A stretch of 64,000 nt of DNA, from positions 1 through 64,000 of the forward strand of contig JAHYJN010000004.1 of NCBI GenBank assembly GCA_019428905.1, written 5' to 3'. The position numbers and the translations under genes were made by a program. The DNA is from Candidatus Brevefilum sp. GTDB lineage: Bacteria; Chloroflexota; Anaerolineae; Anaerolineales; Anaerolineaceae. Every line of letters starts with the position of its first letter. Position 1 is the stretch's first letter. Below the pieces are notes generated by a model. The model ran no database searches. It was not told where the DNA came from and saw only the letters and a program-made list of their open reading frames with translations. Shown here piece after piece: positions 41,901 to 49,612 of this stretch.

Positions 41901-42968
41901 ATGGATGAAACCAAGTTTGCAATTCATATCCACACCCATTATTCAGATGGGCATGCCAGTCACCAAGAACTGGTTAAAATCGCGGCAAAAGCAGGCCTGA
42001 CAGGAATCATCACTACGGATCATAATATCTGGATTGAGGGTCTGGACGGCTATTACGGCGAAGGCAGACACCAAACCATGCTTCTGGTGGGCGAAGAAAT
42101 CCACGACCGCACACTTATCCCTGCGGGCAACCATTTGCTGGCGATTAATGCCCGTAAAGAACTGGCCCCCTTTGGAGATTCCCCTCAACGATTAATTGAT
42201 CAAATTCAGCGCAGTGACGGCCTTTCGTTTATTGCCCACCCGGTTGAGGACCCCTTGGAAGCATTCAACCAAGCAGAATTTTCCTGGCGTAATTGGGATG
42301 TGCAAAACTTCACCGGGATTGAACTTTGGAACCAGATGAGCGAGTTTAAAAGCGTCACAACCAGCCGAGCATCTGCAGTGGTCAATGCCTTTTTCCCAAG
42401 CAAGATGTCCCAAGGTCCACTCGAACGTACACTGGCCTTATGGGACGAGCTTATTGCTACGCGAAACAGGCCAATCGTGGCTATCGGTGGGGTCGATGCC
42501 CACCAATTCCCTTACAAGTTGGGTCCTTTCACTATCTACCTCTATCCCTACCTGCACCATTTCAAGAGCGTGACCACCCACATCCTCAACCCAAAACCCT
42601 TGTCCGGTTCCTTCCCGGATGATCGCAATATGATCATCAAATCCCTCAGTCAAGGCCATTGCTTTGTCGGCTATGACCTACCTGCGTTGACGGATGGCTT
42701 CAATTTCTCAGTCAACAATGACGATGGCCAGTTCATCATGGGAGACGAGGTTAGGATCAAACGTGGGTTGACATTTCAAATCCGTTTGCCCCAACGGGCG
42801 CTGTGCCGCCTGATTAGAAACGGAAACACCATCAAAGAATGGCAGGATCGTGATGTTTGCACGCATATTACGACAGACCCCGGCGTCTACCGGGTGGAAG
42901 TTTTTATTCCTTATAAAGGTAAATTGCGCGGATGGATCTTCAGCAACCCCATTTACGTGTGGAATTAA
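41901..42968 (+). CDS. PHP-domain metal-dependent phosphoesterase
   Basis: A 355-residue PHP-domain protein. Metal-binding motifs are [12 protein letters not shown] at ~8-19, TTDHN near 39, the FIAHP segment near 112 and GGVDAHQF near 197. The PHP part ends by ~260; the last ~90 residues form a beta-rich region of unknown role. PHP proteins hydrolyse phosphoesters, and the substrate here is unknown. The ATG at 41901 has no evident ribosome binding site. The 3' end overlaps the convergent rtcB gene by 4 bp. Confidence 0.8.
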
Positions 42969-44422
42969 CCCTTAATCACCACCAATGGGCGCAATAACGC
43001 GACTTTTTTAGCAATTCCTGCACCGACAACGCTCTCAACCACACGATTTACATCTTTGTAGGCTTGGGGGGCTTCCTCTGCCAATCCCGGCAACGACCCG
43101 GCACGGATTTCAATTCCCTGATCCTCAAGCTGCTGGAGTAGATCTTGGCCCCAAACCTGGCGCTTTGCCTGTGCGCGGCTCATCACGCGCCCTGCACCAT
43201 GACACGAGGAACCGAATGAACGCACCATGCTGGTTTGGGTACCGACGAGCACCCATGAACCAGTTCCCATTGACCCGGGCACCAGGACCGGTTGACCAAT
43301 TCCCGAATATTCCGATGGCAGACCATCAGCACCAGGCCCAAAAGCCCGTGTAGCGCCTTTTCGATGGACACACACACTGGTTTTCTTTCCCTGGATCAGG
43401 TGATCCTCAAATTTACCAATATTGTGGGCAATATCATAGACCTGCTGCAAATGCCAGGTATCAACTTTTCCTGCCAATGCCCTTTCAAAAGCATGACGTA
43501 CTTTGTCTGCGAGTAATTGCCGGTTCAGAAACGCATAATTCGCGCCACAGCGCATGGCGGCCAGATAATCCTGACCCTCTTCAGAGGGAATCGGTGCACA
43601 GACCAGCTGTTTATCGGGCAAATTGATGCCATATTTTCCAACCGCACTCTGCAAGCGCCGCACATAATCCGTACATATTTGGTGACCAAAACCACGGGAC
43701 CCGGTATGAATTTGTACAGCAAGCTCACCCTTGAAGAGCCCCATCACCCGAGCAGCGGCTTCGTCAAAAATTTCTGTGATCAGATCGACCTCAATAAAAT
43801 GATTGCCACCCCCTAAGGTGCCCAATTGTGACCGACCGCGTTCCATCGCCCTCTGGCTCACCTTATCGGGATCAGCCCCTGGCAAACACCCCTGGTCTTC
43901 TGTTCGATCGATATCTTCAGCTGTAGCAAATCCTTTGGACTTCGCCCAACGCGACCCGCGGATACAAGCGTCGGCTAACTCTGCTTTTGATAAATTCATC
44001 TCGCTCGCAACCCCGACACCACTTGGGCAATCCTGGTTGATCGCAGATGCCAGTTCCGGCAGCCACGGCTGCGCTTCTTCATAAGTAATCTGAGAAGCCA
44101 TCAACCGTACGCCGCAATTGATGTCATAACCGATACCCCCCGGTGAGATGACACCTTGTTCTAGATCAGTTGCAGCGACACCACCAATAGGAAATCCGTA
44201 ACCTTGGTGCATATCAGGCATCACCATCACCGCCTCTAGCAAACCGGGAAGTGTGCTGACGTTGACGGCTTGCTCAATCGATTTGTCTTTGAGTGCATCT
44301 TCTAAAAGGGACTCAGAAGCAAACACCCGCACCGGGACACGCATGTCTGAACGAAAATCAGGTGGAATTTCCCATTCAAAGTCACTTATTTTTCGAAATG
44401 TTCTTAAACTAATCTGAGTCAT
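42965..44422 (-). CDS. rtcB: RNA-splicing/repair ligase RtcB
   Basis: Joins RNA 2',3'-cyclic phosphate or 3'-phosphate ends to 5'-OH ends using GTP and Mn2+, forming a His-GMP intermediate. It has 485 residues, normal for the family. Visible are [13 protein letters not shown] near 94-106 (metal Cys), [10 protein letters not shown] near 205, [10 protein letters not shown] near 240 and the guanylated His in [17 protein letters not shown] near 405. The upstream archease gene, 11 bp away, encodes its activator. The two form an RNA-repair operon. Confidence 0.95.
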
Positions 44423-44433
44423 GATGTTTCTTT

Positions 44434-44838
44434 CTATACATCGAATGTGATCGTGACTTCAAAACCGCAATCTGTTTGAGCGACATCCAGGTAGTGAAAT
44501 GTGACCGCTTTGACATGTCGATCTTGAGATAATATCTTTCGACCGGTCATTTGAACAGTTAAACCATCATCATGTTCATCAAACAAAAATGAATCAAACA
44601 ACTGCTCCTTTTCCTCAGCTAAGAACAACAACTCACTCAGGAAATCAACCAGGAGTGTTTCTACTGAGTCCTGCTGAAGTGCAAAAAAAACCTCAACAGG
44701 TGTATCATGCAGAACAACACCCAACAGATCATTAAGACCATAAGCAGCTTGCCTCAACAACGTGTAAAAATCCTCACCCCAAACCCGCAACGCAATATCT
44801 GCTGTGTGGTCAACCTCTTGATAACCGTGTGAAGCCAT
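44434..44838 (-). CDS. Archease, RtcB activator
   Basis: A 134-residue archease-family protein. Archease speeds RtcB guanylylation and widens its NTP use. Seen are the N-terminal [12 protein letters not shown] motif (~10-21, with a metal-binding Asp) and the C-terminal [18 protein letters not shown] segment. It is cotranscribed with rtcB. The ATG at 44838 has no Shine-Dalgarno, and the nearest -10 box predicts a leader of only a few bases, so the message may be almost leaderless. Confidence 0.9.
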
Positions 44839-44857: not shown

Positions 44858-44869
44858 GGATTGGAAATC

Positions 44870-45661
44870 ATGAACAATAGATTTGACCGCATCGAAGCAC
44901 ATCTGCGTGCCATCTTTGAAAAAAACCTGCCAAAGATCTTCACAGGTCGTCAACCACAGGTCACCCTGGTCGATGAGCTGATTCAGGTGATGAGAGCTAA
45001 TGAACGTGAAGATCCGGCTGGACGAATCCTGGCGCCTGATTTATTCAAATTAACCGTTTACCCGGGTGACATAATCGAGTGGCAAATGCACCAGGACATC
45101 CTTGATGAAATTTCCAACACCCTGCACAGAATTGGTATGCAGGAAGGTTTATCCTTCACTAAAACCCCAAAGATCGAACTGCACTCAAATCAAAAACTTG
45201 ACCCAAGCATCTTTGAAATCTCAGCCTTCTACTCACCGTTAGATCCTGACCTGCCGGATACAGCGATCATGCCTCAGCAGGAAGGTGACGGGCTCGAGGC
45301 CGAGGTGCCAGAAAACGCAATGTTGATTATCGCCGGTAAAACCATCTTTCCCTTAGAGAAAGCTGTAATTGACATCGGTCGTCACTCTACCAACCACTTG
45401 GTGCTCGATGATCCCCAAGTCTCACGGCACCACGCTCAACTACGGGCAATTAAAAATCATTATGTCATCTTTGATGTTGGTTCGACAGGTGGGTTATTTC
45501 TCAATGGGAGACGGATCTCCCAGGCAACTTTACATGCAGGTGATGTGATCCGCATGGGGTCGGTTAATTTGATATTTAACCAGGAACCCACTAGTACCCA
45601 CGAAACATCTGTCATACCTATTGAGAATGACGACAATATCAGGGGAGAAGGTCAACGATGA
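44870..45661 (+). CDS. FhaA-like protein (DUF3662 + FHA)
   Basis: A 263-residue cytoplasmic protein. Residues ~1-110 match the FhaA N-terminal domain (DUF3662; NRFDRIEAHLRAIFEKNLP at the start). A linker follows, then an FHA domain at ~170-250 with DIGRHSTNHLVLDDPQVSRH and GGLFLNGRRI, the phosphothreonine-binding loops. In actinobacteria FhaA regulates late cell-wall synthesis under Ser/Thr kinases, but no such kinase is in this window. The ATG at 44870 is preferred to the TTG at 44861. The stop overlaps the next gene by 4 bp. Confidence 0.85.
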   Translation: MNNRFDRIEAHLRAIFEKNLPKIFTGRQPQVTLVDELIQVMRANEREDPAGRILAPDLFKLTVYPGDIIEWQMHQDILDEISNTLHRIGMQEGLSFTKTPKIELHSNQKLDPSIFEISAFYSPLDPDLPDTAIMPQQEGDGLEAEVPENAMLIIAGKTIFPLEKAVIDIGRHSTNHLVLDDPQVSRHHAQLRAIKNHYVIFDVGSTGGLFLNGRRISQATLHAGDVIRMGSVNLIFNQEPTSTHETSVIPIENDDNIRGEGQR

Positions 45662-46083
45662 ACGCCATCCTGGCTTTGATTTTACGCGGACTTTTGTTGG
45701 TATTAACTTATGTTTTTGTTGGCTGGATTGGTTACACCATCTTGAAAGACCTGCGATCACTGTTTGCCAGACAATCCGAACCTGTTGCGTCCACGATATT
45801 CCTGCGTTCCAGCATAAATCAGGACCCCATCGAAATGGATTTTTCGAAGCCCGAAATTATTCTTGGGCGAGACCCAGACTGTGAATTTACCATCCCTGAT
45901 GAAACCATATCCCTCAGGCATTGCAAGTTATCCTACCATCATAAACAATGGTGGGCGAATGACCTCAACTCAACAAATGGCACTTTTCTTAATCAAGACC
46001 TGATCGAATCTGCGGTTATCCTCACCAATGGTGACGTTTTACGATTAGGCAATGTTTCGATAATTGTCCAAATTAACCAGTAA
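45658..46083 (+). CDS. FhaB-like membrane-anchored FHA protein
   Basis: A 141-residue protein with one N-terminal transmembrane helix (~5-28) and a C-terminal FHA domain (~62-140): IILGRDPDCEFTIPD, SLRHCKLSYH and DLNSTNGTFLN. This is the FhaB/FipA arrangement. The FHA domain lies in the cytoplasm and would bind a phosphothreonine on a partner. It overlaps the fhaA-like gene by 4 bp and precedes mtnP by 14 bp. Together with the RodA-PBP gene it recalls the actinobacterial fhaA-fhaB-rodA-pbpA cluster. Confidence 0.85.
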   Translation: MNAILALILRGLLLVLTYVFVGWIGYTILKDLRSLFARQSEPVASTIFLRSSINQDPIEMDFSKPEIILGRDPDCEFTIPDETISLRHCKLSYHHKQWWANDLNSTNGTFLNQDLIESAVILTNGDVLRLGNVSIIVQINQ

Positions 46084-46097
46084 AAAGGGAGCAAAAC

Positions 46098-46964
46098 ATG
46101 AATGATACACCCGTATTAGCGGTGATCGGCGGCTCAGGTCTGTATAATTTCGCAGACCTCAAAGATATTACAACCCTCGAAGTGGATACCCCCTTTGGGA
46201 AACCCAGCTCACCGATCACGATCGGCAAATTAGAGGGTAAACCCGTCGCTTTCCTAGCCAGGCATGGAATCGGGCATGTCTTTCCGCCCAGCGAAGTCCC
46301 TTATCGTGCCAATATCTATGCACTCAAATCCCTGGGTGTATCACGCATCGTAAGCGTCAGCGCTTGCGGTTCATTGCGTGAATCCTATGCCCCAGGACAT
46401 ATCGTCATTCCCAACCAAATTTTTGATTTCACACACAAAAGAGATCGTAGTTTTTTTGATACAGGTCTGGTTGCCCATGTCAGTGTTGCAGAGCCCTTTT
46501 GTGCTGGGCTTTCAGATATCCTTGAGGAAGCCCTTCAACAAATAGGTGCCACTTTTCACAGGGATGCAACCTACATTACGATTGAAGGTCCTCGTTTTTC
46601 CACAAAAGGTGAGTCCAACCTTTACCGGCAATGGGGCATGGATATCATTGGGATGACGGCATCCCCTGAGGTGTTCTTAGCCCGTGAAGCTGAAATGTGT
46701 TACACCACCATGGCACACGTCACCGATTATGATGTCTGGCATACCAGTGAAGCACCTGTGACCGTTGAGATGGTCATCCAAACACTGATCAAGAACGTCA
46801 CCATCGCCCAGGCAGCCATTCAAAACATGGTTAAAGCGATAGATCCTGATGCCCATTGCGGCTGTGAAGATGGCCTGAAAAATGCCCTCATCACCCATCC
46901 CGACTTTGTTGAGCCGGGAAAGCTTGACGAATTGTCGCTTCTCGTGAAAAAGTATTTGGGATAG
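46098..46964 (+). CDS. mtnP: S-methyl-5'-thioadenosine phosphorylase
   Basis: Cleaves methylthioadenosine with phosphate to adenine and methylthioribose-1-phosphate in the methionine salvage pathway. It has 288 residues, usual for the family. Visible are VIGGSGLYNF at ~6-15, FLARHGIGHVFPPSEVPYRA at ~53-72 and TYITIEGPRFSTKGES near 160-175. A related 6-oxopurine phosphorylase is possible, because this family includes both. AAAGGGAG precedes the ATG. It is placed between the FHA genes and the RodA-PBP fusion with 2 bp to the latter. Confidence 0.9.
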   Translation: MNDTPVLAVIGGSGLYNFADLKDITTLEVDTPFGKPSSPITIGKLEGKPVAFLARHGIGHVFPPSEVPYRANIYALKSLGVSRIVSVSACGSLRESYAPGHIVIPNQIFDFTHKRDRSFFDTGLVAHVSVAEPFCAGLSDILEEALQQIGATFHRDATYITIEGPRFSTKGESNLYRQWGMDIIGMTASPEVFLAREAEMCYTTMAHVTDYDVWHTSEAPVTVEMVIQTLIKNVTIAQAAIQNMVKAIDPDAHCGCEDGLKNALITHPDFVEPGKLDELSLLVKKYLG

Positions 46965-46966
46965 TC

Positions 46967-49612
46967 GTGCGCAGATTGTTCCCCATCCGGGATCAGAACT
47001 CAAGAATTGACCAAACCCAAAGCAGGTTAATGTTGCTTGCGGGTTTGGTAGTCTTCAGCTATGGACTGATCCTGACCCTCGCGCCAGCTGTTCGTTATCA
47101 TGCCGGAAGCGAGCGCTACCAATTCCAACATTGGATCGGTGTCGTCGTTTGGGGATTGTCCTTCTCGTTGCTTCACTTTCAAACCACGCGTAGATTACCA
47201 GATAGGGATCCTTACCTGTTGCCTGTTGTTGCCCTGCTAACCGGGATCGGTTTGATGACAATTTGGCGGCTCTTTCCAAACCTCGGCATGCGACAGACAA
47301 CCTGGATCGCAGTATCCACCATCCTGACATTCTTGGGCCTTCAGTACCCTGCCTACCTACAATACCTGCGGCGGTATAAATACATCTGGCTAGTACTCGG
47401 GTTAATTCTGACCGGTCTGACCATTTTTTTAGGCACAAACCCGCTAGGCGCAGGTTCTACCCGTTGGTTGCGCTTGTTTGGCATCCATTTCCAACCTTCT
47501 GAACCATTAAAATTGCTCTTGATAGCCTACCTGGCTGGCTTTTTTACTGACCGCTTATCAGCCTACAACAAGAAGTTTGAGGCTTTGCTTCCCACGGTGA
47601 TCATCATCGGCATTGCATTGCTGCTTCTGGTATTTCAACGCGATATGGGCACTGCCTCCATCTTTCTTTTGATCTATTTGGCGATGTTATTTACCTCCCA
47701 GGGGGATAAAAAAGTATTATGGATCACACCGATACTTCTTATCCCGGTTGCAATAGCTGGTTATTTTTTCATCGACGTCGTCCGTCTAAGGATCGACACC
47801 TGGCTGAGTCCCTTTGGCGATCCAACAGGGGCCTCATATCAGATCATCCAATCGATGGTTGCAATTGCCGAAGGGGGGTTGATCGGTGCCGGCCCTGGTT
47901 TAGGTAGCCCTGGTTTGATCCCGGTATCCGTATCCGATTTTATTTTTGCTGCAATTGCTGAGGAGTTGGGCTTTTTAGGAGCATCTGCAATCATCCTTTT
48001 GGTCATGATTTTTCTTTACCGGGGCATTAAACTTGCCATCATCACGGACCATTCTTTCCATCGTTACCTGACTTTAGGCCTTATCTTTTATTTCGGGATT
48101 CAAAGCATCTTAATCATCGGCGGTAATATCGGCATGCTGCCTTTAACAGGCGTCACCCTGCCGTTTCTGTCTTACGGTGGATCATCGCTCCTGGTTTCCT
48201 TCTTAGGGGCATTGATCTTGCTTACCGTCAGCAATCAAACCAGTTCGGACTATCCCACCAGGAGAATCCATCAACCCCGTTATGCCATGATCGGATTTCT
48301 ACTGATCAGCGTATTGACAGTTCAGATCTTGGCTACCAGTCTGCATGCCTTTTGGTTCAATTCTCCATTGGCCGAAAGACCTGAAAATCCGCGGTGGATC
48401 ATTGACGACCGTTTCAGTAAACGTGGGGACATTCTTGACCGGAACAACCAAGTCATCATCACCAATTTGGGCGATGTAGGTAATTTACAGCGGACAAGCA
48501 ATCATGTCCCCCTCTACCCAGTGATCGGCTATGCGAATCCGGTTTTCGGTCAAACAGGGATTGAAGCTGCAATGTTTACGTATCTACGCGGCAAAACGGG
48601 TTACCCATTTTCGACACTTTTCTGGCACGATCTTCTTTATAACCAACCCCCACAAGGTTTAGATGTGCGGTTGACAATCGACCTGGAGTTGCAAATGTCA
48701 GCCGATGAGTTACTGTCTGGCCAGGCTGGGACGGTCATTTTGATGAATGCCAATTCAGGCGAGATCATCACCATGGCTTCATCCCCATATTTTGATGCTG
48801 GTCTTCTTCAGATAGAATGGGAGAACCTGGTTGCTGATCCTAATGCGCCGCTGATTAACCGGGCGACCCAAGGCTTATATCCCCCTGGGGCAACCCTGTT
48901 CCCCTTTATCATCTCCGCTCAGCCTAACCTTTTACAAATCCCTGAGCCTGAATCCCGCTTACAGTCTGTCATTTCCGATCTGGGTTGCGCCCTGACGCTG
49001 GAAGAAGATCCCTTCAGCTGGCAAAAGCTGGTCACAAACGGGTGTTTGAATGCCCAGGCTGTGCTTGCAGAAGAATTCGGTGCCAATGCATTGTTTGATT
49101 TATATCAGGCTTTGGGCTTATTCACAGCACCTCGAATGCATCTCATGGTTGCAGAACCAGCTGTCCCGGATTTAGCCAACACCGATGTTTTATATCGCGG
49201 TGATGATCATTTCCTGGTCAGCCCATTACAAATGGCAATGGCAGCCAGCGCAATCACCAACCAGGGTTTGGTTCCTGGCCCACGGATTGTCAATGCCGTC
49301 CAAAATCCAAGCGGAGGATGGATTACGCTGCCAAAATTGCAGGGAAATGCCTATGTGATCCCGGTGAATACCGCCAACCAGGTTAATACATTGCTCAGGG
49401 TAGAAAGCTCGCCGTATTGGCAGGTGATCTCTGTCATCACAGATGAAAATGACCAGCCAATCACCTGGTTTATTGCTGGAACCACAATCGATTGGCAGGG
49501 ACAACCGATCACTGCTGTTGTCGTGTTAGAATCTCACGCACCTCAAATCGCGGAAAATATTGGCCAGAGTTTAATTGAACAAGCCATCCGCTTTGCTGAC
49601 CAAAATCCTTAA
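46967..49612 (+). CDS. RodA/FtsW glycosyltransferase fused to a degenerate penicillin-binding domain
   Basis: An 881-residue fusion. The first ~450 residues form a RodA/FtsW-type SEDS polymerase with about ten to twelve helices; the likely catalytic Asp is D324 in VSVSDFIFAAIAEELG. Residues ~480-880 follow the PBP transpeptidase layout (GDILDRNNQVI, then GYANPVFGQTGIEAA). All catalytic motifs are altered: SxxK reads ATLF (A642, F645), SxN reads CLN (693-695) and KTG reads IAG (836-838). The transpeptidase is therefore probably inactive against peptides. The start is GTG at 46967, 2 bp after mtnP. Confidence 0.85.
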   Translation: MRRLFPIRDQNSRIDQTQSRLMLLAGLVVFSYGLILTLAPAVRYHAGSERYQFQHWIGVVVWGLSFSLLHFQTTRRLPDRDPYLLPVVALLTGIGLMTIWRLFPNLGMRQTTWIAVSTILTFLGLQYPAYLQYLRRYKYIWLVLGLILTGLTIFLGTNPLGAGSTRWLRLFGIHFQPSEPLKLLLIAYLAGFFTDRLSAYNKKFEALLPTVIIIGIALLLLVFQRDMGTASIFLLIYLAMLFTSQGDKKVLWITPILLIPVAIAGYFFIDVVRLRIDTWLSPFGDPTGASYQIIQSMVAIAEGGLIGAGPGLGSPGLIPVSVSDFIFAAIAEELGFLGASAIILLVMIFLYRGIKLAIITDHSFHRYLTLGLIFYFGIQSILIIGGNIGMLPLTGVTLPFLSYGGSSLLVSFLGALILLTVSNQTSSDYPTRRIHQPRYAMIGFLLISVLTVQILATSLHAFWFNSPLAERPENPRWIIDDRFSKRGDILDRNNQVIITNLGDVGNLQRTSNHVPLYPVIGYANPVFGQTGIEAAMFTYLRGKTGYPFSTLFWHDLLYNQPPQGLDVRLTIDLELQMSADELLSGQAGTVILMNANSGEIITMASSPYFDAGLLQIEWENLVADPNAPLINRATQGLYPPGATLFPFIISAQPNLLQIPEPESRLQSVISDLGCALTLEEDPFSWQKLVTNGCLNAQAVLAEEFGANALFDLYQALGLFTAPRMHLMVAEPAVPDLANTDVLYRGDDHFLVSPLQMAMAASAITNQGLVPGPRIVNAVQNPSGGWITLPKLQGNAYVIPVNTANQVNTLLRVESSPYWQVISVITDENDQPITWFIAGTTIDWQGQPITAVVVLESHAPQIAENIGQSLIEQAIRFADQNP

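What the first reader, a model, noticed from the sequence alone, without database searches (positions are those of the whole stretch)
46967..49612. RodA-PBP fusion with a catalytically dead transpeptidase half
The C-terminal half follows the order of a class B penicillin-binding protein, yet the catalytic Ser and Lys of SxxK are A642 and F645, SxN reads CLN at 693-695, and the KTG Lys position reads Ile (IAG at 836-838). The likely polymerase Asp of the SEDS half (D324) is kept. SEDS proteins normally need a separate class B PBP as activating partner. Here a pseudo-PBP appears built into the same chain, which would be a polymerase carrying its own non-enzymatic activator. Neighbouring FHA proteins suggest phosphorylation control.
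Basis: partly seen in the sequence, partly recalled or inferred. Interest (0 to 1): 0.78.

Follow-up and report, generated by a model that had tools for sequence, protein, structure and literature searches.

The report
Cell-wall polymerase fused to dead crosslinker

The parts
46967..49612 (+). SEDS-pseudoPBP fusion gene, 881 aa, GTG start
46967..48241 (+). SEDS polymerase half (residues 1-425)
   Evidence: PF01098 at 108-425; predicted TM helices
47936..47938 (+). D324, aligned with the catalytic Asp of E. coli RodA (D262)
   Evidence: 70 of 70 dead-partner rows, 49 of 49 intact-partner rows
48275..48355 (+). TM helix joining the halves (residues 437-463)
   Evidence: hydropathy, model helix
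48377..48721 (+). pedestal / PBP dimerisation part (residues 471-585; borders mine)
   Evidence: PBP_dimer_2 at 486-567, 10 of the 25 shared conserved positions
48722..49609 (+). pseudo-transpeptidase domain (residues 586-881)
   Evidence: PF00905 broken match, fold
48890..48901 (+). lost SxxK (A642-T-L-F645)
49040..49048 (+). lost SxN (G692-C-L694)
49424..49432 (+). lost KTG (V820-I-S822)
44861..45661 (+). FhaA-like protein (FhaA_N + FHA)
45658..46083 (+). FhaB-like protein (TM + FHA)
46098..46964 (+). purine-nucleoside/methylthioadenosine phosphorylase-like gene (PF01048), syntenic, role here unknown

Best explanation
The protein descends from the SEDS-PbpA pair of an FHA-linked growth cluster. 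In one Chloroflexota lineage (mainly Anaerolineae) the PBP lost transpeptidase motifs (shown by sequence), kept its fold (predicted) and purifying selection (shown), and was fused to its SEDS partner, probably more than once (tree-supported). Inferred mechanism: the SEDS half polymerises lipid II using D324; the PBP's TM helix and pedestal hold and activate it as in RodA-PBP2; the dead TP domain is a structural scaffold or strand guide; crosslinking is done in trans by other PBPs of the cell. A link to Ser/Thr phosphorylation through the FHA neighbours is speculative.
For: 0 of 76 dead partners keep the SxxK Lys, none has Lys at the KTG column, the SxN Ser is gone in 76 of 76 (absent column in 45); 56 of 56 intact partners keep S and K. 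25 positions are at least 90% conserved in both groups, 10 of them in the pedestal. Omega of the pseudo-TP half 0.09-0.26 in 7 usable of 9 pairs. D324 70 of 70. Fold kept in the window model and in L084, which lacks the SxN segment. It is a third SEDS: the own genome has two more, each on a contig with an intact bPBP, plus two MecA_N-type bPBPs and one class A PBP. Published passages: PBP2 stimulates RodA while mecillinam blocks its TP, and D262A abolishes activity (PMC6207328); pedestal-ECL4 contact transmits activation and inactive PBP2B supports B. subtilis division with PBP3 crosslinking (PMC8078798).
Against: No polymerase, binding or activation data. RodA is stimulated by the PBP2 TM helix alone (PMC10449877), so activation does not explain why the whole TP domain is kept. 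The pedestal is not consistently more constrained than the TP domain (pair L050/L051: 0.265 and 0.257). All 9 of 9 family genomes without a match lack this SEDS, so it is dispensable. Part of the conservation at 629-638 in the named loci follows from the search pattern, though it is also seen in the 45 proteins, which were not so chosen.
Confidence: 0.68

Rival explanations
1. The pseudo-TP domain is mainly a ligand-binding module: it binds stem peptides or nascent glycan without chemistry, as substrate guide or wall sensor, rather than activating the SEDS half.
For: The whole TP fold is kept and under selection, more than the TM/pedestal alone would need.
Against: The active-site columns are the most relaxed ones and the SxN segment is deleted in many members (45 of 76), so a conserved substrate pocket is not evident.
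Confidence: 0.2
2. The PBP half is a decaying remnant without function.
For: Motifs lost, SxN segment deleted with at least 5 changes on the tree, PF00905 score falls from about 196-204 bits in two intact proteins to 41-49 in three dead ones.
Against: Omega 0.09-0.26 in 7 pairs, 25 shared conserved positions, confident fold even with the deletion, no frame breaks in the listed family matches of the window's closest relatives.
Confidence: 0.04
3. The PBP half is still an enzyme using other residues.
For: Thr stands at the Ser column in 25 of 76 dead proteins.
Against: No residue is conserved in place of Ser or Lys (11 and 13 different residues); only four Lys remain in the window's half.
Confidence: 0.03
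4. The machine makes an uncrosslinked or different glycan (not ordinary peptidoglycan), and the pseudo-PBP guides it outward.
For: It is an accessory third SEDS whose own partner cannot crosslink.
Against: SEDS residues around D324 are as in the intact-partner group. No product was analysed.
Confidence: 0.05

Closest known systems
RodA-PBP2 / FtsW-FtsI (SEDS-bPBP synthases)
   Same: SEDS plus class B PBP, TM-pedestal-TP order, catalytic SEDS Asp
   Different: Normally two genes and an active transpeptidase; here one chain and a dead one
RodA-PbpA of the actinobacterial FHA/PknAB cluster
   Same: Gene order FHA-FHA-SEDS-PBP; best fold matches include PbpA
   Different: PbpA there is separate and catalytic; kinase genes not beside the locus here
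Natural SEDS-PBP single-ORF fusions (said to exist, citing the Rhodococcus sp. RHA1 genome paper; PMC10449877, passage and reference list)
   Same: One chain
   Different: That passage does not speak of a dead transpeptidase; I did not see that protein
TP-inactive PBP2B of B. subtilis and PBP1* of S. aureus (PMC8078798, PMC9426605, passages)
   Same: Show that a bPBP keeps non-enzymatic functions without TP chemistry
   Different: Laboratory mutants or drug-blocked proteins; in S. aureus TP activity is still essential. Here the loss is natural and lineage-wide

Membership tests
SEDS glycosyltransferase (PF01098) | Family profile match and multi-TM fold | tested here: met
SEDS glycosyltransferase (PF01098) | Catalytic Asp of extracellular loop 4 | tested here: met
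   D324 aligned to RodA D262; 70 of 70
SEDS glycosyltransferase (PF01098) | Lipid II polymerisation | not testable with these tools
   needs biochemistry
Class B PBP (transpeptidase) | TM helix, pedestal and TP fold | tested here: met
   PBP_dimer_2 below its cut-off
Class B PBP (transpeptidase) | SxxK, SxN and KTG motifs | tested here: not met
   so it works as a bPBP-like partner at most, and is a pseudoenzyme by sequence
PbpA-type bPBP of the FHA/STPK cluster | Gene order with FHA genes and SEDS | tested here: met
PbpA-type bPBP of the FHA/STPK cluster | Ser/Thr kinase beside the locus | tested here: not met
   six Pkinase matches in the genome, none on the window's contig
Natural SEDS-PBP fusion | Single open frame with both halves | tested here: met

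The most novel reading that the evidence does not exclude
A whole lineage runs a dedicated SEDS machine whose product is not crosslinked by its own partner: the pseudo-PBP has become an allosteric and exporting subunit that beta-lactams cannot acylate, and the strands are used uncrosslinked or as a different glycan.
Probability: 0.12. Interest if true: 0.9.

Novelty: new variant of a known kind. Interest (0 to 1): 0.72.

Why it matters
Whether a class B PBP's contribution to its SEDS partner is chemistry or allostery has been approached with point mutants, drugs and synthetic fusions. Here evolution seems to have made the separation: chemistry was lost, fold and pedestal stayed under selection, and the pair was tied together, apparently more than once. 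It offers a natural single-chain polymerase for structural and enzymatic work, a residue map of which bPBP positions matter without catalysis, and predicts a SEDS machine whose partner cannot be acylated by beta-lactams.

Tried and rejected
Rejected: assembly or contamination artefact (235 of 301 genomes of the order have a match at E <= 1e-60; that search shows neither fusion nor motif state). Rejected: intact motifs elsewhere in the chain. Disfavoured: neutral decay.

Limits and results against a simple story: of the 53 non-fused entries, eight are dead (L098, L101, L105, L106, L107, L111, L112, L115); four of them are cut by a contig end and two have no SEDS hit in the locus, so only L105 and L112, with L048 and L059, count as separate dead pairs. 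Holding these four together is not clearly rejected (AU p 0.065), so fission in some lineages is possible. The AU groups were named after the tree was seen, and the trees are 'quick' ones with many open forks. With L047 (another class, a genome with 8% contamination) the dead/alive label needs 2 changes, without it 1. L121 counts as intact (4 of 5 residues) although its C-terminus does not align. dN/dS: 9 pairs run; L046/L055 used the wrong ORF and is dropped, L017/L090 is saturated. The 25 family genomes were 16 of the 59 with a match and 9 of 9 without; the nine come from three genera, so at most about three losses. The PF12401 search (9 of 25) was too weak and was repeated with the window's protein. 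The rows shown for the window model hold PBP chains only; no absence is claimed. Two loci, L064 and L067, gave no PBP hit and were not followed.

Literature: ten searches listed no title or abstract start on a natural dead SEDS partner or on Chloroflexota SEDS-PBP fusions. Passages of eight papers were seen (for PMC10449877 also the abstract, outline and part of the reference list); none was read whole. The T. thermophilus RodA-PBP2 paper was not held. That B. subtilis PBP3 is of the MecA_N type is recalled.

Full report
What is there. The frame 46967-49612(+) encodes 881 aa. Residues 108-425 match the SEDS family (PF01098, 3.3e-71); the C-terminal half matches the PBP transpeptidase family only in broken stretches (PF00905, 2e-10), and the PbpA dimerisation model scores just below its cut-off. 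A TM helix at 437-463 separates the halves, which fits a SEDS protein ending inside and a bPBP starting inside (topology recalled).

Motifs. MAFFT alignments with PBPs of the same genome and of related loci, a profile alignment to solved PbpA and the predicted secondary structure agree: SxxK is A642-F645, SxN is G692-L694, KTG is V820-S822. All three motifs are lost, so the core observation holds with two positions corrected.

Not a local accident. From 400 genomes of the phylum (360 with a match at E <= 1e-20) I took the loci with the longest matches and some others and found 45 fused proteins: 44 of 45 are dead; the exception, L049 from another class, is an intact fusion. Among the 80 kept loci of a titled collection (capped list), 27 are fused and 27 of 27 are dead (five duplicate the first set); record titles of dead members name Anaerolineaceae, Bellilinea, Anaerolineales, Anaerolineae, Ardenticatenaceae, a MAG labelled Herpetosiphon and other Chloroflexota. 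One of them, L077 (titled Anaerolineaceae bacterium), is identical in this protein's PBP half to a genome of the window's own genus. After deduplication 76 partners are dead and 56 intact: 0 of 76 have Lys at the SxxK Lys column, 9 of 76 still have Ser at the Ser column, none has the SxN Ser (45 lack the column), none has Lys at the KTG column (one Arg); in the intact group S and K of SxxK are 56 of 56.

History. The order FHA-FHA-(MTAP)-SEDS-PBP is shared with loci that have a separate, intact PBP, including an actinobacterial one with kinases (L122). On the tree of SEDS halves one clade of all 70 dead rows is not rejected (70 against 17 rows, AU p 0.555, constrained tree slightly better). 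The fused dead rows as one clade are rejected, because the separate dead pairs L048, L059, L105 and L112 fall among them: p 0.0007 for 66 rows, p 0.017 for 65 rows without L047. So catalysis was probably lost first, while the genes were still separate, and fusion came later and probably more than once; fission in some lineages is not excluded. As open frames from the first possible start, the separate genes overlap in L048, L059 and L112.

Still under selection. Nei-Gojobori omega for the pseudo-TP half is 0.09-0.26 in the 7 usable of 9 pairs, for the SEDS half 0.01-0.16, for the pedestal 0.02-0.27. Twenty-five positions are at least 90% conserved in both groups, 10 in the pedestal and 15 in the TP part; positions conserved only in intact proteins include 642, 645, 692, 694 and 820-822. 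D324 is kept in 70 of 70 rows with dead partners and 49 of 49 with intact ones.

Cell context. The window's genome has two other SEDS, each on a contig that also carries an intact bPBP, two MecA_N-type bPBPs with intact motifs, and one class A PBP. In 25 genomes of the family, the 16 with the fusion have three SEDS and the 9 without have two. An FhaA match lies beside the fusion in 14 of 16; none of the 9 has a match to the FhaA N-terminal part. It is therefore an accessory machine, largely kept or lost together with FhaA; simple deletion of one locus would explain this too.

Mechanism. Passages of published work show that a bPBP can stimulate its SEDS partner while its TP is drug-blocked and that the SEDS Asp is required (PMC6207328), that the pedestal-ECL4 contact transmits activation and that inactive PBP2B supports B. 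subtilis division with PBP3 crosslinking (PMC8078798), and that the PBP2 TM helix alone stimulates RodA (PMC10449877). By analogy the pseudo-PBP is most likely a tethered activator and scaffold, with crosslinking in trans. Shown here: motif loss, conservation, selection, gene order, predicted fold. Inferred: polymerase activity, activation, crosslinking in trans, any phosphorylation link. The retained whole TP domain is the part this model explains least, which is why the ligand-binding rival gets 0.2.

Novelty. Natural SEDS-PBP fusions are on record (PMC10449877) and non-enzymatic bPBP roles are known from mutants. A lineage-wide natural pseudo-bPBP, fused to its polymerase, did not appear in the listings of my ten paper searches. 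I rate it a new variant of a known kind.

Noticed in passing
window 46098-46964: A methylthioadenosine/purine-nucleoside phosphorylase-like gene lies between FhaB and the SEDS gene in many of the examined loci, including ones with separate intact PBPs; why a purine-salvage enzyme sits in a wall-growth cluster is unclear.
   Followed up: partly
L049:5656-8460 (-): A SEDS-PBP fusion in another class of the phylum with all three motifs intact, apparently an independent fusion.
   Followed up: partly
G176, G520, G547, G611, G617, G623, G629: Seven genomes of one genus in the window's family lack the third SEDS and any FhaA N-terminal match: natural knock-outs.
   Followed up: partly
L002 and L003 (own genome, contig C111): Two neighbouring MecA_N-type class B PBPs with intact motifs, candidates for crosslinking in trans.
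   Followed up: no
window 42965-44838: RtcB and archease genes next to the FHA genes, also found in L077-L080 and L105.
   Followed up: no
G000:C41:71304-72074: A Ser/Thr kinase match with one in-frame TAA.
   Followed up: no
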